From positions 24,588,001 to 24,652,000 of the forward strand of contig NC_080574.1 in NCBI RefSeq assembly GCF_029962835.1: DNA of 64,000 nucleotides, in the 5' to 3' direction. This document shows positions 49,460 through 61,938 of this stretch, piece by piece. Each line of letters begins with the position of its first letter. Position 1 is the first letter of the stretch. Source of the stretch: Magnolia sinica (lineage: Eukaryota > Streptophyta > Magnoliopsida > Magnoliales > Magnoliaceae). The position numbers and the translations under genes were made by a program. The notes below the pieces were generated by a model. The model saw nothing but the letters and a program-made list of their open reading frames with translations. It did not search any database and was not told where the DNA came from.

Positions 49460-49461
<2 letters not shown>

Positions 49462-49876
49462 GAGTGTAGAAGTGTTAGATGGCGCCACCATCCGTGCATT
49501 TGTGGAGGACGAGCTTGCCTTCAATGTCTCCGTCAACAACCATTTCGCAAGCCTCGACATAGACCACGACGGTCTCCTATCCTACACAGAGATGATGAAA
49601 GAGCTAAAGAGTCTTAGGGTCCTAGAGACCCACTTCGGCATTGACTTTGTGGAGTCAAGTCCTGATGAGATTGCACTCCTCTACCGTTCCCTCTTCCTCC
49701 AGTTCGATCACGACCACAATGGGACCGTGGACTTGGAAGAGTTCCGGGCAGAGACTAAAGAGATGATGCTTGCTATGGCGAATGGGTTAGGATTCTTGCC
49801 TGTTCAGATGGTGTTGGAAGAGGATAGCTTCCTCAAGAAAGCCGTTGAAAGGGAATCTAACATGGTCGCTGCTTAA
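49460..49876 (+). CDS. EF-hand Ca2+-binding protein, copy U4
   Basis: An intact 138-residue intronless frame. The protein is identical to U3. Two canonical EF loops (33-44, 83-94). The coding DNA follows U3 at every site where U1 and U3 differ. The upstream region is that of U1, including the G-box at 48693-48698, so U4 pairs a U1-type promoter region with a U3-type gene. Likely functional if the locus is real; see the finding on possible haplotype duplication. Confidence 0.85.
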
Positions 49877-50743: not shown

Positions 50744-52062
50744 AATCCAACGGTCAGATATAAACCGATGATCATGTGTGGCCCACCTAATAGGAGTCTT
50801 ACATAGACTTGCCTATTCTTCTAGCAGAATACACATACGGTGGGACCCCAAGTGATGGACATTGTGGCTCTTGTTGGCATGTGTGCAGGGAGTAGGAATT
50901 GACCAAAGCATATGCACATCAAACAAATTAGAGATGTGTCTGTTTGTATGGAGTCCAAAGGAATGGACTATTTGCCTCCATTGATCGAGTTCCAACTCTT
51001 CTGTCTCAAGATCGTAGAAAGTGTTGATCGGTTCAGACACATTATGGGGTGGTGCGCTTGGATGTACTATGTGTCCATATTACTTCAATTTAATGTGGAC
51101 AAGACTCCTGATGGGTAATTGTGAAGGGTTTAGCTACTGATGCCCTCTTCTATTAATAGGTTGTTGAAATGATGTTTTCATCTATGGATCACCAACCATA
51201 TTCAATCGATCAATCCCCTCCAGAATTAAACGGAGAAAGAGAGCACTCTAAATGTTCTTTCCTCTCCAAATAGTAAAGAGACAATGGTTCGATGGATCTG
51301 GATACGAATCCAACCCAATTTGCTTGCCAAATCCTCCAATGAGGCAATAATGATGTGGTTCAAGGGTGCTTATATTGCCAATTACCGTTGGATATAAGGA
51401 ACCTTTACAAAAATAAAGACAACACGTTCTAAGAAACAAGTTACTCAAACACATCTTATAAAAACTCCCGTTATTGCAAGGTGCATAAAAAATTAGGGGT
51501 AGCAATGGGCCGCATTTCGTCTTGGCCAACATTTACGACTCGATGGCCAAGCTAAACCCTGAAAAAAAATGGTCAGCCTGGCCTGGAAATTGATAAAACC
51601 CCTATCTCCTACTTAAATGTTCCTAATCTATAATTCATTCAAGTGGGCCACATATGCATAAAGAAATAAACATTTGGAGGAATGAAACAAACCATCTACA
51701 ATTTTACATTAAAGACGGATGAACCATCGGGCAATTCATGCATGGTCAGGCTAAAATGACTTGAGCCCAAGCGGGAAATTATGATACGGGTCACAGCAGC
51801 CATCACAGCTCCCTTAACAGTCAACTTTGTTTTAAAGGAATAAAATCTGTCTAACCCAATATCATTATAATGTCCCATTACAGGCATTTTCTTTATTTTT
51901 TCCTAATGGAGTCAAACTTCACATAATAACTCCCACCGTTACTGTTATGTGACCTTTTCTTAACAGCTGCTAATGCCAGAAAGGTTCCATTCAAAGCCGC
52001 AAATGCCCTCAATGATGGCGACCGCTTTAAGGGTTCCATGATTTAGATAGTTTGATTTGAAT

Positions 52063-52180
52063 TGCCATAGTATCATCCATGACACTACCAAAGTATCAAA
52101 TATGGCTTTGATGTAGAATCAATTACCATAGTATCATCCATGACACTACCAAAGTATCAAATATGTCTTTGATGTAGATC
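52063..52180. repeat. Two-copy tandem repeat, about 60 bases
   Basis: 'ccatagtatcatccatgaca', 'ctaccaaagtatcaaatatg' and 'ctttgatgtaga' occur twice in direct succession, almost identical. Confidence 0.85.

Positions 52181-52336: not shown

Positions 52337-52369
<33 letters not shown>
52337..52369. repeat. (TA)n microsatellite
   Basis: About 16 uninterrupted TA units. Confidence 0.95.
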
Positions 52370-52372
<3 letters not shown>

Positions 52373-53190
52373 GACCATTCATTACTTTTTTCATTCTTAC
52401 ATTATGCCTACCCACAATTGATCTGTTGGGCTTGTAAGTGTAATTTTTTGGATTATAATCCATCTACAATGTAACCAACGAAAAGGAATTACATGTACGT
52501 CCTGTACCAAAAGTTACATCGAGTGGATGGTCGAATCCGCTAATCAGGAGCCAGAAACTGAATTTACACTGTGGGCTGTAGGGGCCAATAGCCCTTCCAA
52601 TTCCGGTCAGACCGTCTGCGGCTTGTTTCGGGCCTTCAGTCCATTGGAAGGAATTACAGACCTCATGCGATGAATCGACATATATAGGTTCCCTCCAGGA
52701 ATGAGATGGCCTCCATTGGACCATTTTACGCCCACAGAAATGCACGGTTAGGATGTTGATACGCCCATTAATAATAGATGTCTGTGGTCAAAAATATATT
52801 CTGAAGAGGGGTTGAAATAGTTGCGTAAGACTGATGAAAGTGCCACCATTTCTTTAACAGTGGTGTCTCATCCACTGTACAAAAGGCAGACTTTTAAGGC
52901 AATCCGGTCCGTCTAAATAGTGGGACCCACTGGGGGTGGAGTAGACCCCGAATAGTCATTGATCAAACGAAATTAATCATATGGATTCAGAAATTGAATT
53001 TGCAATGGCGATGGTTTTAAAAACAAACTTTTCCAATTGCCAGCCAACGAATGGATGGTTAGGATTTTTCTATTAGCGTGATATCCAGGATGTGCTCAAT
53101 CAACATTTCGACCTTACAATTGGACGTCTCGGATTAACGTTAACGGTTGACACGTGTAGAATGGATGCGACACCTCACTTAAATGGACAC

Positions 53191-53693
53191 GGATTTCCTG
53201 CTATGGCTTTCGCACGAAGTTCCTGTGTGGGGCCACTGCAATGTTTGCCACTCCGTTCATCCATTTTTTGATCTCATTTTAGTACATGTGACCAAAAATA
53301 AAATGTATCCAAAACTTAAATGGGCTACATGAGAGAAAATAGTAGGGATTTAGTGACCACCGTTGAACCATTTATATGGCCACAAAAGTTTTGTATTAGT
53401 TTAAGTTATTGGTGTTTTTACTTCATCTCTGTGAAAATGGCCTTATAAACAGTTTGGATGGAATATAAACATCATGGTGGAGCCTAGGAAGGTTTCAACA
53501 GTAGGCATTCCTTTTCCCACTGTTTCATCTCGTATGGCCCACTTGAGTTTTTGATCCTCCTCATTTTTTATCGAAGGTCTTAAAATGAGATCAAAAAACG
53601 GATGAACAGATTGGATTTATCACAAACATTACAGTGGGCCCCACACAGAATCTTGTGCAGGAAGTTCCTGCGAAAGCCTTTCGCAGGAAATCC
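53191..53693. mobile_element. MITE, GGGCCCAC family
   Basis: Ends GGATTTCCTGC...TGGCTTTCGCA on the left and, inverted, GGATTTCCTGCGAAAGGCTT on the right. Inner arms with 'tgtggggccactg' and its inverse. It lies directly against the Harbinger element and splits U5. Confidence 0.75.
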
Positions 53694-54412
53694 TCGTCCC
53701 TTAAGGGTGTGTTTGGCCGGAGCGATCCCATGGGATTAGGAGGTATGGGATGGCTTTTAAGGTAATGATGGTAGCATTAGTAGATGGTCGGCCGTCTTAT
53801 GGGATTTTCATATCCCTTTACCAAAACATGTGCCTGTTTGGTCCATCACAACCATCCTAGGATCACTGACGTGATCCTGTTTGGATGGAGATGGGATTCC
53901 ATTTTAATCCTTGCGATCCCACACCCACAGCGTGAGGTGGTTTGACTGCTCTCACCCAACATGCTTGTACTTCCACACCCAATCCAAACCGTCTGAAACC
54001 ATGGCCGAATCTCTGTGGGACCCACATCGTTATATCTGTGTCATCCAAACCATCAATGTGTTGTACTGTATCATCCGAACCGTCCAGAATGATTTGGATG
54101 GGTGGAAATATGAAGGCCATGACCGGGCTTATCATTGTGCGTACACTGCTTCCTATGTATGACTGTCCTGTTCGTGATCTGGGTCAAGCCACCTAATGCC
54201 AGGGAGCGGATTTGCTGCCACCCGGTCTTCATCTCAGCCATACACAACAAGGGATGATTAATTCCATTTGTGCATATGTGTGGATGTTTAGGGAATCAGA
54301 TCCAATTGGATGATTATGATATCAACTCCTAATGCAAGACGTACTATGACTATAGTATGTCATAAAATCATCCATTAATGTACCAATGTTAGTAAAACAT
54401 ACCCAACAATAT

Positions 54413-54814
54413 CTATAATTTTATCATAATATACAATACGAAAAAAACAACCATTACTCCAATCAGGAGTGCCAATAATCTCTCTGCAGCTGAAGGGGGG
54501 AGATCATCAGTAGAAGTTGGCCTGAAAATAGTTGCCCGGGCTGTCCATTGGATAGACAGCATTGCAGAATGACGGACATCAACTGCATCCGCTGAAGCTC
54601 CCACATCTCCAGATGGAGCTCCACATCCATGGGTCGGTGGTTCAGTTGCCAGATCGAAAAAACTGTCCCAATATGTTGTTGCATCTCTTCAATTAGTAAA
54701 CGCTCGATGGCGGCTCCGACTGTATCCATCCACCTCGACTCGCGCATCATCCCATGTAAGATAAATACCTTGCCGACGACCAACCAGGACAACATAGTAT
54801 TTTTTCTTCGCCAT
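54413..54814 (-). pseudogene. Harbinger-borne ORF with RNase H1 hybrid-binding-like domain and C-terminal membrane segment
   Basis: The frame starts MAKKKYYVVLVGRRQGIYLT and continues WDDARVEVDGYSRSRHRAF. This fits the small N-terminal domain of eukaryotic RNase H1 (hybrid-binding, Pfam Cauli_VI type), with YYVV, GR-x-x-GIY, TW and V-x-GY in the right order. After residue 41 a TGA (54689-54691) interrupts; the same frame then continues about 90 codons to a hydrophobic end (LLALLIGVMVVFFVLYIMI), which would be a tail anchor. No catalytic RNase H domain follows. It lies within the transposon, downstream of the Myb/SANT ORF on the same strand. What it did for the element is unknown. Confidence 0.6.
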
Positions 54815-55262
54815 CTGCCAAGAGAGGTTCAATATCGCAATGAATAACAACAAATTGAAAGTGATGCCTTTACATCACAAAGAAAAAATGTTAATCTAAT
54901 AAAAACATATGATGTCAGTTTGGGGAGCGTAACTTCTCTCTGTACGAAGTGTGTGGTCCTATCAATAAAATACTTATACAAGAAAAGCTCCAACACATCC
55001 AGAATTATATTGAATAATTACATATCAAGTATATGGAATCCAAAAATATAAGGAACATAACAAAATAAAGAAGTTATTACATGCCCAGAAAAAAAAAACA
55101 TCCGTTCACCAAAAACCACAAAATCTAAAAAGAAAAAGAGTTTCTTGTAGCAAGTGCTCTGCACCTCTAAATACCATATTAATGGTACCCCACTTGCAAA
55201 GTTTTTAAACCTCAAAGATCAGCAACAATCAAACAGAACCACCACCATCATTACCTTTCAAA

Positions 55263-56375
55263 TCAGACAGTTTTTTTTAGCCAATCAACAAGGCAATCTG
55301 GCCGTAGGGCAACAAAAAAGGAGGCAAGCTCGTGATCTTTATTCAAGAGCTGACCAACCTCAATAAATTCAGCATTGGTTAGCCCTTGAACCTCTTCCAG
55401 TAGGTCTAAGACACATCGTGTTTGGTTGATATTCTTTCCTACAGAGAAGTTACGCATAGCCTCTGCGACACTCGTGAGAGATATGCCTACGACATTACAT
55501 GGTCAAGCAGGTTGCATCCTTTTTGTTGTTCCACTCCCACCACAACTAGTATTGGAATCAGTTCTATGGATGGCAGTATCTTGAAACGGCCTATTTTTCC
55601 TTGTTTGACTGTCCGTTGATTAGCCATATATGCCAGGTGATTCAGAGAGGTTTTCCTCAGAAAGGTCCACGGTAGCATCTGTGTCATCGTCCAGCCCTCT
55701 CCACGAATCATTGAGGTCTCGATAAACACGAGAACAGGATGCTGTAATGTTCCTACTTCCTTGCGCATATCTGCCCGTAGCCTGGTCAGACTTGACAATC
55801 ACCGATAAATCATCCATCCGTTCAATTCGCTTGCCTTGCAACCTCTCAGCTCGCGGATGAGACTATAAACATGATAATTTTAAATATCAGTAAATGTCAG
55901 TTAACTATCAAAATTTAATACAACAAAATACTTGAATTTAGGTTACCTTTAAATACTCCTCCCAAACCTCGTCTGGGGCCGTCACCACCATCCGCTCGCA
56001 GTCCCAACCAAAACCGCTCGCAGCTAGCATGTCCTTTATATCACTGTACTCCCTCTTGTGATACCTCAATCTATTCTGTATATTTTGCCAGGTGACAATA
56101 ATCTGTGTACGTTTATGTACCTCGTCGGCTGCCGCTTAATATGCTTCTCGTTTGAAGCCATTATCTGCCTTTTTACCTAGCGCGATTTGCTCAATCAAGG
56201 TGTCGAACAAAACTTGATCCATAGTTCCAGTCCATTTGATCTTTGCAGCACGAGAGGAAGGCTCTGCCAGAGATTTTACGGACTTCCCATGCGGTGAGCA
56301 ACGTGTCGGTAGAACCGGGCTATGCAATGGCGATTGAGTCGGAGTCGTAGTAGAACCTCTCAAATTGGCCGACAT
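55263..56375 (-). pseudogene. Harbinger ORF1, Myb/SANT-like DNA-binding protein
   Basis: It begins MSANLRGSTTTPTQSP. The Myb/SANT-like region starts at KIKWTGTMDQVLFDTLIEQI and runs on through WQNIQNRLRYHKREYSDIKD and GFGWDCERMVV to DEVWEEYLK. An intron of 84 bases (55863-55946, GT...AG) follows, then a Ser/Asp-rich exon. An in-frame TAA (56136-56138) interrupts the domain, and further breaks follow the stop at 55620. In active Harbinger elements this protein brings the transposase to the terminal repeats. The order and strand relative to the transposase are as expected. 55263-55457 encodes a plausible C-terminal part (TNAEFIEVGQLLNKDHELAS). Confidence 0.75.
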
Positions 56376-56624
56376 ATCACCTATGTATAGAAGGGAATAC
56401 AGTTACACAAAAAGAATAATAAGGAATACAGTATGTGTCAATTATAAGATTTCCCAAAATGAATATGTACACGTCTAAAACAATTCTTGATGTATGAAGA
56501 TTTTTTTTTTTCAAAAATTGTACAAGGTGCAAAAAACTATTACTTCGAAGTTGTACAAAAAACAGGTAAAGAAATTACTTTCCCCCAGGCAGTAGGTCAT
56601 GATTATCACAAAAACCAAGTAGGA

Positions 56625-58001
56625 TTATCGAATCCTACTATTGTTTTGGGTGTCTTCCCACATACGCTCCGTGATCCTATCACGAGTTCTGATCCAGTCA
56701 TCCTTCGCTTGTTGAGTGACTTGGACTAGCCATTGCCTTTCATCAATTGTTGATACCTCATTTGGGGTAGTATTTGCCTCAACGTCACCCACTAATACAC
56801 CTATGTCACACAAGTCTTGGTCCAACCCATCCTCACTCCGTATGAAATTATGTAGCACATAACAAGCAACGACAATTTTCACCTGTGTATCAAAGGGATA
56901 TTGCACAGGCGTCTTTAGAATTGAAAATCTCCCCTTCATCACACCGAAATATCGTTCAATTACATTTCGCAATTGCGCATGCTGATAATTAAATAATTCT
57001 TTCACATTCATGGGTGATCTCCCGCTATGGTACTCCTGCAGATGGTATCGAACTCCACGATAAGGGGCCATGAACCCTAGTGAATGAGCGTAACCAACGT
57101 CCACAACGAAGTATTTTCCTACACAATTGCAGGAATAATTCTTTCAGTTTTGCATGAAGACGATAATATGCACCAATTAATATTCGATTGATACTGAATA
57201 TTAGTTACCGTGGGGCATAATAAGTAGATCGTTAGATCGCGTCAGGGCATTATGTAGTACCCGCGCATTCGACGTTGAACCTTCTCATCCAGCTAACACG
57301 TACAATATTGACATATCAAATGAACAAGCTGCAAGTACATTCTGCGACAAGAAACCTTTTTAGTTGCGGAAGCTTGCATGTTCTGATGCTGGTATGTGTG
57401 CCGAAATATGCGTCCCATCGATCGCACCCACGCAATCCTATAACGGCAAAGTTGTCGAGCCTATAGGATTAGTATCAGATGATATCTCTTTTTACGTGTA
57501 GATTTATAAATGATTAGTTAGTCTATAATGATACCTGAAAATAACTAGACCAACGAGTATTTTCCTGAATCTCAATCGGTGTTTCTTCGCCCACCTGCTT
57601 AACATATTCAGGGTACAGGGAAACAATCGCCTCTAAAACTTGGTAAAAGTGACGGCTTATAGTTTCACCAAATCGACAAAATCTGTGTCCTATCACACGA
57701 TTTCAGACGTTGTGGCCAACTGTATGCAAGAAATACACAAGTTGTTCTTCCAAACTAACATTACGTGTATCGCGTAGGGTCGTCTTATCACGCAGTACTT
57801 CACATAGATGGAAAAATGCGTCCTGCTTCATCCTAAGTTGGGTAATGCAATCCTTATCTCCTGTTCGAATAATTGAATTGATAAATCTGGCACGCGCGTC
57901 ATCTCTATTCGAGCTGGTTCTCTAAACATGTAGTGCCGACAGTATTCCTCAATACCTATAACACATGCAACCACCGCTAGGAGAACAATGGAATCAGCCA
58001 T
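56625..58001 (-). pseudogene. Harbinger transposase (DDE_Tnp_4 / ALP1-like), inactivated
   Basis: It starts MADSIVLLAVVACVIGIEEY, as in plant Harbinger transposases. The three catalytic acidic residues are visible: D in CVGAIDGTHIS, D in KYFVVDVGYA, E in LRNVIERYFGVMKGRF. An intron of 90 bases (57119-57208) separates the first D region from the second. Breaks: stops at 57703-57705, 57360-57362 and 57284-57286, plus a frameshift near 57830. The last 160 codons are open. Related host proteins (ALP1) exist, but linkage to a Myb/SANT ORF and terminal repeats marks this as a transposon gene. Confidence 0.85.
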
Positions 58002-59626
58002 GTCATCCTCATCTTCAGAGCTATCACCTATCAACCACGTATGAATACACGTGGAAATAAAGGACTTTACAAAAATCGTAAACCGCCCAAGTAGAAAAGA
58101 GTTTGAAAACAATTAATTGAAGTTGAAATTGTTTCACTTAGTGTTTTCATTGATTAATCGAGTTAACAAACACGTTCCATCGAGAACAAGTTTTAAAAAG
58201 TCCAAATTAAACAAGTTTTATAGCTGAAGAGTAGAGGAAATCTGTCCAAGGAGTCGAAAAGAAAGTATTCTCTTCTTAGAAACTATTTATTAAACAAGTT
58301 TTAAAACCAATAGTGGAACACTGTTCGTAAACCAATGGCAAAAGCAAATTGAAATTGGACAATTGGATGTTTCTCATTGGTAACTAAGTTATAGTATGAA
58401 TTGCTTGGGTGCCACGAACGCAGCGGGTAACTAAGTTACAAGTGTTTGTGTTTCACCTATCACTCTGCCTAGGCATCAAAGTCTTTCCAAATCAAGGAGA
58501 AGCTACTTTCTTATCGGAAATACACAAATTGCCATGAATTTCAGAGTTACTTGCACATGAATATCACATATTCCCATGCACATTATCAACCTAGCAGTAT
58601 CCACATCCATTAGGTTGTAAAAGAACATACCGAAACTATGTGTTGCAGATATGTGGACGCGATATCACTATAACCGAATGTCTCGCTCTAATCTGTAAAT
58701 AATCACGCATATATATGAAAACGTAATTAGTTTTTAAAGCAGTTGATCAACACAATAGATTTGGAAGTGAACAAAGAGCATCCACCAAATGTTTTGAATC
58801 TGCATAATGTGTTAACTCTGATAAAGAAATGATCTAACCTGAGAAAAATACGCACCAATTTTATAGTTGTGGCACCCACAAGGTGAGAGTCCTGCCATTT
58901 TTTTTTACCTGTGGCTCGCTCAATAAATGTTTTCATTTTATATCAAAGCTGTCCATTGAGAAATTTTGATGCTACAGCCATTTGCACCAATTTTCTTATA
59001 TATGGTGCTGTGCCAGGGAGCCACCTTGATGCATATATTCAATCCTACTCTCAGATTTGCCCCTCACCACAAGGACACAGCATTTTTCTTTTATGTTATC
59101 TTATTAGGTTCCTTCATGGAGGTCCATATCCAGCCAACAAAGGAATGTATCGCCATGTATTTTGTTGTGCAATATCAGAACAAAAAAAACAGATGGAACA
59201 TGTGGTAGCAACATTTTCCTCAGAAAGGTATATCAAAATGGTATGAAGTCAAAATAGTAGTCAACAGAGATGAACAAAGATTGAATATTCCATATCATCA
59301 CAGGTCCAATCCAATGATCCGTAATGAAACATGCACCACATGCATACTAGGCAATCATGAATCACAAGTGATCATAGAAATGAAAACGAATAAACACCCA
59401 AAACATTTTCAAAGTATATGCTGGGTCCAAAAACCGTCTCCAGATCTTAATCCATGCATCAAATCAAATAACTTGTGGTGGTAATAGAGATCAGGCAAAA
59501 GAACGTCTTCACCCACCGTTATGAAAAAGAAAAAAAGAAGAGGAAAGACCTTTTTTTTCTTCGAAATATCAACGTTTCTATCAACAACATCAATAACCAC
59601 ATTCCGTCTAAAATATCTTTCTGACA

Positions 59627-59935
59627 ATGCTACCAAAACAGATACAATGCACCAGAGATGAAAACACACCAAAGATGTCAGATAATGAATTAGCAACTGT
59701 CCATAATGTGGATGCAGATAGATGGTTAAGAATAGTAGGAATTGACCATCCACCTTTAAAAAAAACATCGGATAGAGATGAATTAGCAGTGTTTCGGTTG
59801 CGGGAGCAAATGGATGAAATGAGCATCCACATTGAAAAAATCATCCGTTCAGCACGTTTTATGACCATGATACACCCTGTCTCCGAAATTTCAAGTACTA
59901 CGCAATCCGTTCACACAAACAATCAACATACATAG
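59627..59935 (+). CDS. Unidentified 102-codon ORF in the Harbinger element, opposite strand
   Basis: Starts at an ATG and reads in part DADRWLRIVGIDHPPLKK then DELAVFRLREQMDEMSIHIE, a charged, protein-like composition with a possible amphipathic helix near residues 58-78. No domain was recognised. Frames on the other strand overlap it. It lies in the 3.4 kb between the transposase start and the right terminal repeat, where no gene is usual for this family. A captured fragment or chance ORF are both possible. Confidence 0.25.
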   Translation: MLPKQIQCTRDENTPKMSDNELATVHNVDADRWLRIVGIDHPPLKKTSDRDELAVFRLREQMDEMSIHIEKIIRSARFMTMIHPVSEISSTTQSVHTNNQHT

Positions 59936-61418
59936 ACTACTACAGGCCAATCGAAGATATTACAGGTGTACCTACGCACGATGTTCCCAAAATTCTGGTC
60001 ACTTGAAATTCAGATAGGAAAAAAAGTAAATTAATTTATATGTTAGGATTTCCTCAAGTGAAGGGGAGAAACCAGTGAACAGTAAAACCGTTGGCATCCT
60101 TATCATGCCATGTTCAGTATTAGTACACAAGTTCAAACAATCCGCAAATCAATTGAAATATTAACTCAGTTGAATCGTCGGAAGATCGAATTCAACCAGC
60201 CAGTATAGATATGTGGTAACCCTAATAGAGAATAGCTATTATGTCAGTCATCCACCATAGTACAGAAAAAAATGAAAAAGAAATATAACAATAGCCGGAA
60301 ATATATGGAACGTGTATTAAGTTGAAGATCCAACGGATATCCTTTCACCTTCACAAAAACCAAATTGTTTGGTGCTAATAACAGGGTGCCAAAAGTGCTG
60401 AGTAGTAACAGTAATCAAGTAATATGTAAAGAATAATAACACACAGAGGTATGAAATTTTTTCTCTCCTAAAATCCATTTTAATCCACCACCGTGTCCAT
60501 GGGCGGTGTGTAAACCGAACCATTTCTATGTCATGCAAGAAGTCGTGCCTCTCCAAAACCCGATGATCTGTATGACATACCCACTGATAGCAACTGCTCT
60601 GTGTAGAATCCGAGCACGATGGATTTCAATCCCAATTCCTTAACCAATCCATCTCCTGATCTCCGCCAAAAGAGGCGTTAATCGTGCATGCATGCGAACC
60701 TACAGATCTGACCGTCGACCCTTCACAGTGCAAAGCATATGGCAGAATGATGGATTTTGCGAAGTCGACTACTTGCAATTTCGAAGAGATTAATTTCACA
60801 CATGGACATTAGAAAAAGTTTTGGAAGTTTTGAAAACGGGACGACATCCGATTGAAGTATTGATAACAACAGAACATCCTGAAACGGCTAATCCGGAGAC
60901 AAATTAGGAGAAAATCAGGGTAAGGGAGACATACCTCACGCAAGAGCAGCGACACCTATGCAGAGACGGGAGCTTACCTTCCCCCCGTAGGGCGATGAAT
61001 GGAGCAAGACCTGCTGCAACCATGGATAAATAGCCGGTGATGGACGTTGCTGACCGAGGACCATACCATCAGCAGTTCATCTCTGCTAGTACGGACCTGA
61101 GCACTGCGGGAAGGGATATTTTAAGCAGCGAGGGCGTTTCCTCTCCGGACACGCGAAAATCCAGTTGCAGAGTGAAATCCCGCGGGATTTGTTGGTGGGC
61201 TCGAGGAGACGAGAGAGGTGGGATGGGATATCAGGGCGATATCCACCATACACGATTTCAACAGCCATGGGATTGAGAGGCATTGCGGATCCCACGCGAC
61301 GCAAACGCGCGCGTGGGATGTGCACGCGGGATTGCGTCATCCCATCCGCCGTAAGCTATATTAATCCCACTGCCCAAACACGCCCCAAGCGGGAAAATCA
61401 CCATCGTGGATCCGGAAA

Positions 61419-61938
61419 CGGATTGGCTACTCCCCTGCCACCAGCCCTGTGGCTGGTGGTCGGTGCTCTGTGGGCCCCACCATGATGTATGTGTTTCATC
61501 ATTCTGATCATCCTTTTTAAAGATCATTTTAGGGTTTTAAACCAAAAAATGAGATTGGATATCTCAGGTGGACCACACCACAAGAAAACAATAGTGATTG
61601 GATATCCACCATTAAAATCCTCCTAAGGCTCATTGTACTGTTTATTTGACTTCCAATCTGTTGATTAGGTCATTAAGGCCCAGATGAAGGGAAAAAACAA
61701 AGATCAGCTTGATCCAAAACTTTTATGGCCCCCAAAAGGTCTTTAATGGTCGACGCTCATTCAACACTGTTTCCTGTAATGTGTTCCACTTGAGATTGGG
61801 ATATATCTCATTTTTGGTCTCATACCATAAAATGATCTGGAAAAATATATGGACGGCATGGATGAAATACGTACATCATGATGGGGCCCAAAGAGCACCG
61901 ACCACTAGCCATTGGCTGATGGCAAGGGATGCCAATCG
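61419..61938. mobile_element. MITE, GGGCCCAC family (long arms)
   Basis: Left arm GGATTGGCTACTCCCCTGCC then 'ggtcggtgctctgtgggcc'; right arm, inverted, CGATTGGCATCCCTTGCC then 'ggtcggtgctctttgggcc'. A second small inverted repeat (CCAGCC...GGCTGG) sits in the left arm. It lies 32 bases from the Harbinger right end. Confidence 0.75.

What the first reader, a model, noticed from the sequence alone, without database searches (positions are those of the whole stretch)
54413..54814. RNase H1 hybrid-binding-like domain plus tail anchor inside a Harbinger element
Harbinger elements normally encode only a transposase and a Myb/SANT protein. Here a third ORF on the same strand begins with the YYVV...GR..GIY...W module of RNase H1 and ends in a hydrophobic helix, with no RNase catalytic domain. 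If shared by relatives, it may be an undescribed accessory protein that binds RNA:DNA hybrids or dsRNA and anchors to a membrane.
Basis: partly seen in the sequence, partly recalled or inferred. Interest (0 to 1): 0.75.

Follow-up and report, generated by a model that had tools for sequence, protein, structure and literature searches.

The report
Third gene in plant Harbinger transposons
Many Harbinger jumping genes in this plant genome carry, besides their two usual genes, a third one for a small protein with an RNase H1-type nucleic-acid-binding head and a membrane-type tail; selection has kept it, so these elements probably use it, but what it does is not known.

Summary
The domain holds (Pfam PF01693, RNase H1 N-terminal, E=1.6e-12), inside a Harbinger element (53705-61385). 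The real result is genome-wide. Capped searches of this 1.84-Gb genome list 428 distinct places matching the domain or the full protein. Of the 150 best domain matches, 66 have a listed SANT or DDE gene within 12 kb, every one upstream on the same strand. The gene co-diverged with SANT (r=0.82, 12 elements) and keeps one plan: hybrid-binding-type domain (HBD), variable linker, C-terminal hydrophobic helix. In the window's family (29 copies), internal branches show purifying selection (omega 0.36; HBD 0.16); terminal branches are near neutral (0.91); other frames show none. I conclude that it is a real third gene of many, not all, Harbingers here. Papers I could search describe Harbingers as two-gene elements. 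Function (nucleic-acid binding, membrane anchoring, perhaps anti-silencing) is inferred: W43 is kept, but of the KK59/60 pair that human RNase H1 needs, position 60 is never basic here. No transcripts, structure model or other plant genomes were available.

The parts
53705..61385 (-). Whole Harbinger element, 7681 bp, genes on the minus strand
   Evidence: TIRs GGGTGTGTTTGG.../GGGCGTGTTTGG...; DDE_Tnp_4; SANT
53705..53716 (+). Terminal inverted repeat, 3' side of the genes; flank TAA at 53702-53704
61374..61385 (-). Terminal inverted repeat, 5' side of the genes; flank CAA, against TAA at the other end
   Evidence: copy L041 (94% identical over the 701-base query) has TTA on both sides
54413..54814 (-). 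Third ORF (HBD + linker + C-terminal hydrophobic helix), broken in this copy by an in-frame TGA
54671..54802 (-). RNase H1 N-terminal / hybrid-binding-type domain (residues 5-48)
   Evidence: Pfam PF01693 E=1.6e-12 with X at the stop
54689..54691 (-). In-frame TGA, codon 42
54422..54478 (-). Hydrophobic helix, candidate tail anchor (residues 113-131, 2 residues before the stop)
   Evidence: hydropathy of relatives, same position
54815..54826 (-). Candidate 3' splice site CTCTCTTGGCAG directly before the ATG
   Evidence: AG directly precedes the start position in 40 of 62 rows against 5.7% background
55263..56375 (-). Myb/SANT (ORF1) gene, broken in this copy
56625..58112 (-). DDE_Tnp_4 transposase gene, broken in this copy
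   Evidence: genome match at window 56847-57422 with 2 TGA and 3 TAA inside

Best explanation
The ORF is a dead copy of a genuine third gene of a large group of Harbinger elements in this plant. The gene encodes a 120-145 aa protein with an N-terminal RNase H1-type hybrid-binding domain, a fast-changing linker and a single C-terminal hydrophobic helix, as in tail-anchored membrane proteins. SHOWN here: presence, position downstream of the transposase and SANT genes on the same strand, co-divergence with them, and purifying selection on internal branches. INFERRED: (1) the protein is put into the ER or nuclear envelope by its tail, domain facing cytosol or nucleoplasm; (2) the domain binds double-helical RNA or RNA:DNA hybrids; (3) it helps the element multiply. 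The mechanism I consider most likely (about 0.35) is an action on the element's own transcripts, or their dsRNA or hybrids, at the ER/nuclear membrane, that is, shielding the element from RNA silencing. Less likely (about 0.2 each) are tethering or localising the transposition complex, and a protein-protein role of the domain without nucleic-acid binding. The confidence below is for the third-gene claim, not for this mechanism.
For: Domain; 4 relatives scanned reach E=1.1e-11 to 2e-17. The DNA search gave 41 matches, 66-97% identical besides the window itself, 40 of 85 candidates scored. SANT found within the 1.5-kb flank of 23 of the 29 loci that match the protein, the window copy included. 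Upstream of 4 other distant copies: SANT and DDE in 4 of 4. Upstream of 7 further copies: SANT in 6 of 7 (one, L065, by its C-terminal half only, by eye), DDE in 5 of 7. Of the 150 best PF01693 matches, 66 have a listed SANT or DDE within 12 kb, each upstream on the same strand, 0 in other arrangements; at 10 kb about 0.24 chance pairs are expected against each of the two first lists. Converse: of 10 DDE-SANT pairs drawn at random from the 30 without a listed HBD, 7 have the ORF downstream. Selection (29 copies): omega internal 0.36 against terminal 0.91, 2dlnL 30.9; HBD 0.16, linker 0.54, helix 0.45; shifted frames 1.87 and 2.47; part of SANT in 23 of these copies 0.33/0.97. Without the two most doubtful rows (L037, L038): 0.35 and 0.83, 2dlnL 28.9; with a tree from flanking DNA only, 28.1. 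Codon bootstrap: internal 0.25-0.52, below terminal in 60 of 60. Co-divergence, 12 of 14 elements: HBD-SANT r=0.82 (p=0.0004), HBD-DDE 0.39 (p=0.005), SANT-DDE 0.48. Helix: in 16 of 16 proteins or second exons that I picked as readable, hydropathy peaks 0-7 residues from the C-terminus; in 4 tested, 0 to 2 of 2000 shuffles reach the peak. Matches running from domain through helix in two groups.
Against: No expression, splicing or protein data. Not all Harbingers here have it: L075 lacks it, L069 keeps only a helix-like remnant (by eye), L077 seems truncated. For L049/L064 neither DDE nor SANT was found, and for L050/L065 no DDE. The helix part alone does not reach significance for selection (2dlnL 3.65, or 3.27 without two rows), and the L049 helix is weak (1.65). 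The HBD-DDE correlation is modest (0.39). At the human K59 position the family has R or K in 40 of 57 and at K60 never a basic residue (0 of 57), so hybrid binding may be weak or lost. The anti-silencing role has no direct evidence. In pooled lists a few pairs lie in other arrangements (3 with 428 places; 4 with 300). One genome only.
Confidence: 0.85

Rival explanations
1. A host gene fragment captured by one or a few Harbinger copies (transduplication), with no function for the element.
For: Such capture is described for long PIF elements of grapevine (PMC2528002, passages), and the HBD is a host-type domain.
Against: Present in at least three groups with HBD distances up to 0.66, co-diverging with SANT; purifying selection like that on SANT; upstream, same-strand SANT/DDE partners in every linked case of the PF01693 list.
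Confidence: 0.05
2. The HBD exon is not a separate gene but a 3' exon of the SANT or transposase mRNA, joined by (alternative) splicing.
For: A splice-acceptor-like CAG stands directly before the ATG in many copies, and a conserved donor-like AAG|GTACGC lies 155 nt upstream in the window's family.
Against: Where read, SANT genes end in their own stop several hundred bases upstream (e.g. window, L068). In the L001-L008 type the AG lies a few bases before the ATG (e.g. TTGCAGCGAAATG, L001), so an upstream frame would not be kept in common. This fits a 5'-leader intron better.
Confidence: 0.2
3. The domain is a protein-protein interaction module (for instance with transposase or SANT), and the protein retains or imports the transposase at the nuclear envelope; no nucleic-acid binding.
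For: The KK59/60 pair is not conserved. Harbinger transposase localisation is regulated: an export signal in TPase limits activity, and ORF1 is needed for nuclear entry in the zebrafish element (PMC2836001, passages).
Against: Two aromatic positions of the RNase H1 domain are nearly invariant (Y 53 of 57; W 52 of 57, 4 of the other 5 being stops), and W43 is needed for hybrid binding in the human domain (PMC10639055).
Confidence: 0.25

Closest known systems
PIF/Harbinger elements (Ping, Pong, PIF, Harbinger3_DR)
   Same: TIRs, TTA/TAA target site, DDE_Tnp_4 transposase and Myb/SANT ORF1
   Different: [quoted passage not shown] here a third conserved gene follows SANT
ISL2EU (Harbinger-like, animals)
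   Same: A Harbinger relative with an accessory protein of another family (YqaJ exonuclease; PMC9179366, passage)
   Different: There the exonuclease stands in place of the Myb gene; here the protein is additional, and it is HBD + helix
RNase H1 hybrid-binding domain (PDB 1qhk and 3bsu)
   Same: Sequence match E=0.00029 and 0.0076 for the L012 protein; W43 and Y29 positions kept
   Different: No RNase H domain found; KK59/60 replaced by mostly [RK] or Q and A/S/G; a C-terminal helix is added
Caulimovirus P6/viroplasmin (Cauli_VI)
   Same: Same Pfam family; P6 is recalled (no call) to suppress silencing
   Different: Lies in a DNA transposon beside a DDE transposase; no other Pfam family passes its cut-off
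Transposon-encoded anti-silencing proteins such as VANC of VANDAL/Hiun (recalled, no call)
   Same: Extra gene of a plant DNA transposon that could counter host silencing
   Different: Recalled as an unrelated DNA-binding demethylation factor without a membrane tail; not compared here

Membership tests
PIF/Harbinger superfamily | DDE_Tnp_4-type transposase | tested here: met
   E=2.8e-12; relatives
PIF/Harbinger superfamily | Myb/SANT ORF1 | tested here: met
   window piece below the Pfam cut-off on its own; the whole domain, with a stop, aligns in the window at 152 bits to the L061 one
PIF/Harbinger superfamily | TIRs with 3-bp TTA/TAA target-site duplication | tested here: met
   L041 TTA on both sides; window TAA against CAA, one base apart. 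Both ends were checked in these two elements only
RNase H1 hybrid-binding domain (PF01693) | Profile match over the curated cut-off | tested here: met
RNase H1 hybrid-binding domain (PF01693) | Hybrid-contact residues (W43 and KK59/60, whose mutation compromises binding, PMC10639055) | tested here: inconclusive
   W43 position W in 52 of 57; K59 position R/K in 40 of 57; K60 position basic in 0 of 57
RNase H1 enzyme | RNase H catalytic domain | tested here: not met
   only PF01693 passes its Pfam cut-off in the window reading and 4 relatives
Tail-anchored membrane protein | Strongest hydrophobic stretch within a few residues of the C-terminus | tested here: met
   16 of 16 chosen sequences, 0-7 residues after; Kyte-Doolittle only, no dedicated predictor or signal-peptide test
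Tail-anchored membrane protein | Post-translational insertion into a membrane | not testable with these tools
   needs localisation or insertion assays
Caulimovirus viroplasmin | Gene of a reverse-transcribing virus | tested here: not met
   lies between Harbinger TIRs beside a DDE transposase

The most novel reading that the evidence does not exclude
A major group of plant Harbinger elements is a three-component system. Its third protein is a membrane-anchored binder of dsRNA or RNA:DNA hybrids that protects the element from RNA silencing (or organises transposition at the nuclear envelope): a membrane-based counter-defence of a cut-and-paste DNA transposon.
Probability: 0.25. Interest if true: 0.88.

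Novelty: new variant of a known kind. Interest (0 to 1): 0.72.

Why it matters
[quoted passage not shown] A third selected gene would mean that two-gene transposition assays miss part of the biology of many natural lineages, and a membrane tail on a DNA-transposon protein is unexpected. It also gives a testable candidate for how such elements reach high copy number under RNA silencing. It may further explain many small plant proteins that databases would label 'RNase H1 N-terminal domain' (inference, not searched).

Tried and rejected
Overlapping 110-aa ORF in another frame (54463-54795): rejected as a gene; no Pfam match, and the two shifted frames show no purifying selection and hold 152 and 212 stops against 39 in the true frame over 29 copies. 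Recent host-gene capture: rejected by co-divergence and selection. The first codon-model fit was badly converged (a negative likelihood ratio for one control frame) and was replaced; one search repeats it without L037 and L038, because L037 has no recognisable HBD part and both sit on long branches. Relatives in IMG/VR viral contigs: none by this search. Other plants could not be searched: the tool says it holds no relatives of this genome. An NCBIfam search failed on wrong coordinates and was not repeated. Literature: 10 searches of the open-access library. Nine of them (all but 57) sought this gene; four gave no paper at all (13, 33, 46, 58; in 13 the underscore term may not have worked), and in the listings of the others no title or abstract start describes it. 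Most listed papers were not opened. Passages were seen in PMC4289320, PMC2836001, PMC9710019, PMC9179366, PMC10639055 and PMC2528002; in PMC2213677 the five terms sought had 0 occurrences. Repbase and subscription papers were not searched. A host RNase H1 gene as the origin of the domain was not sought.

Full report
WHAT IS IN THE WINDOW. The window is 64 kb of a 1.84-Gb genome (G000:C2:24588001-24652000); that it is a plant, magnolia-like, is my guess from gene content, genome size and 19 large contigs, not a result. The part before the stop alone matches Pfam PF01693 (RNase H1 N-terminal domain, Cauli_VI) at 4.7e-12, the whole with X at the stop at 1.6e-12. The ORF sits in a 7681-bp element with TIRs ending at 53705 and 61385, with a broken DDE_Tnp_4 transposase and a broken Myb/SANT gene upstream on the same strand. 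L041, 94% identical over the 701-base query, has both TIRs and TTA on both sides. So the anatomy is right, and this copy is dead.

THE FAMILY. A DNA search with 54200-54900 found 41 matches; besides the window itself they are 66-97% identical (97 is a short piece), with 40 of 85 candidates scored. Of the 30 loci fetched, one of them the window copy, 29 match the protein and 28 have the HBD part (L032 neither, L037 only linker and helix). L012, L022 and L023 are uninterrupted over the window protein's 133-residue length; L017 also, but without ATG at the start position. SANT lies in the 1.5-kb flank of 23 of the 29. The ORF is more conserved than its surroundings: mean pairwise identity 0.78-0.82 in the windows on the ORF against 0.49-0.75 in the flanking windows.

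SELECTION. A codon model of my own with separate omegas for internal and terminal branches (29 copies, stops as missing data) gives 0.36 on internal and 0.91 on terminal branches, 2dlnL 30.9 against internal omega 1. By part: HBD 0.16 (26.5), linker 0.54 (5.9), helix 0.45 (3.65, just short of significance). The two other frames of the strand give internal omegas of 1.87 and 2.47. A 118-codon part of SANT in 23 of the copies gives 0.33 and 0.97, 2dlnL 18.5. Without L037 and L038, whose alignment is doubtful, the result is 0.35 and 0.83 (28.9; HBD 0.17, linker 0.58, helix 0.46 with 3.27), other frames 2.15 and 2.69; with a tree from flanking DNA only it is nearly the same (28.1). Bootstrapping codons 60 times gives internal 0.25-0.52, below terminal every time. 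This is the pattern of a gene that moving elements needed and that decays after insertion, and it resembles that of ORF1. Limits: fixed tree, branch lengths scaled from a nucleotide tree, single-nucleotide codon steps.

HOW WIDESPREAD. Searching the genome with PF01693 gave 1159 first-look candidates; 150 were scored and all 150 exceed the cut-off. Full-length proteins of two groups returned 150 scored matches each (of 1139 and 1047 candidates). In one search, 29 of the first 30 rows run from residue 3 or earlier to 119 or later of 125, and 28 of them to 124 or later, that is, domain through helix. Pooled these are 428 distinct places matching the domain or the full protein, some of them partial. 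The caps make this a lower bound on matching places.

CONTEXT. The lists of 150 DDE_Tnp_4 and 150 Myb_DNA-bind_3 matches used (one search had 159 matches, of which I entered 150 listed rows) are themselves samples of 1542 and 1316 candidates. Even so, 31 of the 150 PF01693 places have a listed SANT and 18 a listed DDE within 10 kb, each upstream on the same strand, with 0.24 chance pairs expected for each list. With a second DDE list (150 of 1396 candidates scored), 66 of 150 have one or the other within 12 kb and none is in another arrangement; the other 84 have no listed partner, which with sampled lists does not show that they lack one. In the pool of 428, 95 have a SANT or DDE partner and 3 pairs lie in other arrangements. 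Direct reading upstream: SANT and DDE in 4 of 4 (L042-L045); of seven further copies (L061-L067) SANT in 6 (L065 by its C-terminal half, by eye) and DDE in 5 (L061 partial), L064 neither. Conversely, of 10 DDE-SANT pairs drawn at random from the 30 (of 37) without a listed HBD, 7 have the ORF downstream; L069 shows only a helix-like remnant by eye, L077 seems truncated, and L075 has a TIR-like end without the ORF. So many but not all Harbinger lineages here carry it.

DEEP CONSERVATION. Twelve of 14 elements examined have usable DDE and SANT matches (L049 and L050 dropped out). Their HBD distances correlate with SANT (r=0.82, p=0.0004) and DDE (r=0.39, p=0.005) distances; SANT and DDE correlate at 0.48. 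By these distances there are three groups (window type with L046 and L051; L047, L048 and L059; L005-L008); no tree of the groups was built. Across 16 proteins or second exons that I picked as readable the plan is kept: HBD, linker without visible similarity between groups, hydrophobic helix 0-7 residues from the end (mean hydropathy 1.65-3.27). In the L001-L004 type an intron of 118-128 bp separates HBD and helix exons, in phase 0 in L002-L004 (TATCAG|GTTT... ATTTAG|GC). AG directly precedes the start position in 40 of 62 rows against 5.7% background; three rows are second stretches of copies already counted, 38 of 59 without them. A donor-like AAG|GTACGC is conserved 155 nt upstream in the window's family. 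I read this as an intron in the 5' leader; it needs cDNA.

WHAT IT MAY DO. The closest solved structures by sequence are RNase H1 N-terminal domains (1qhk, 3bsu). In 57 HBDs of this genome (62 rows less the window copy, three repeat stretches and the weak L064) the tyrosine at the Y29 position is kept in 53 and the tryptophan at W43 in 52 (4 of the other 5 are stops). The K59 position is R or K in 40 and Q in 8; the K60 position is A, S or G in 52 and never basic (numbering counted from W43 on the alignment). W43A and KK59/60AA both compromise hybrid binding of the human domain (PMC10639055, passages). Binding is therefore plausible but not assured. The C-terminal helix fits tail anchoring. 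Combining both, I think an action on the element's RNA at the ER/nuclear membrane, probably against silencing, is the best single guess (about 0.35). Localising the transposase is a good rival, since Harbinger TPase localisation is reported to depend on ORF1 and on an export signal (PMC2836001, passages).

KNOWN OR NEW. PMC2836001 and PMC9179366 describe Harbingers as two-gene elements, and PMC9710019 does so too (passages). The grapevine survey reports captured host sequence in long PIF elements but, in the passages seen, no such gene (PMC2528002). The one PF01693-transposon link found is a captured piece in a fungal Helitron (PMC4289320, passages). Nine searches of the open library listed nothing whose title or abstract start describes this gene. 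Repbase was not available, so prior notice there cannot be excluded.

LIMITS. One genome, no transcripts, no structure model, capped lists.

Noticed in passing
window 53190-53690 and 61450-61911: Inverted-repeat, MITE-like stretches stand close to both ends of the Harbinger element (51-nt arms, 90% complementary, at 61450/61861; the left one seen by eye).
   Followed up: no
window 52060-52178: Two tandem copies of a 61-bp unit, 96% matches, followed by a TA run of 16.5 units at 52337-52369.
   Followed up: no
window 49460-49876: ORF of 138 aa on the + strand with EF-hand-like calcium-binding motifs (recognised by eye).
   Followed up: no
L001-L004 (from about 1648 to 1766-1776, oriented): An intron of 118-128 bp separates HBD and helix in one group, while other groups have an uninterrupted ORF: intron gain or loss inside a transposon gene.
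   Followed up: partly
L075; also C8:52875073 and C10:54682016 by similar DDE-SANT spacing: Harbinger lineage with a long transposase frame and a different SANT protein, with a TIR-like end and no third gene; only L075 was read.
   Followed up: partly
L055 (451-1256, oriented); L049 and L064: Two third-gene ORFs lie in tandem in L055, and a second weak HBD match lies upstream of the L049 copy in L064.
   Followed up: no
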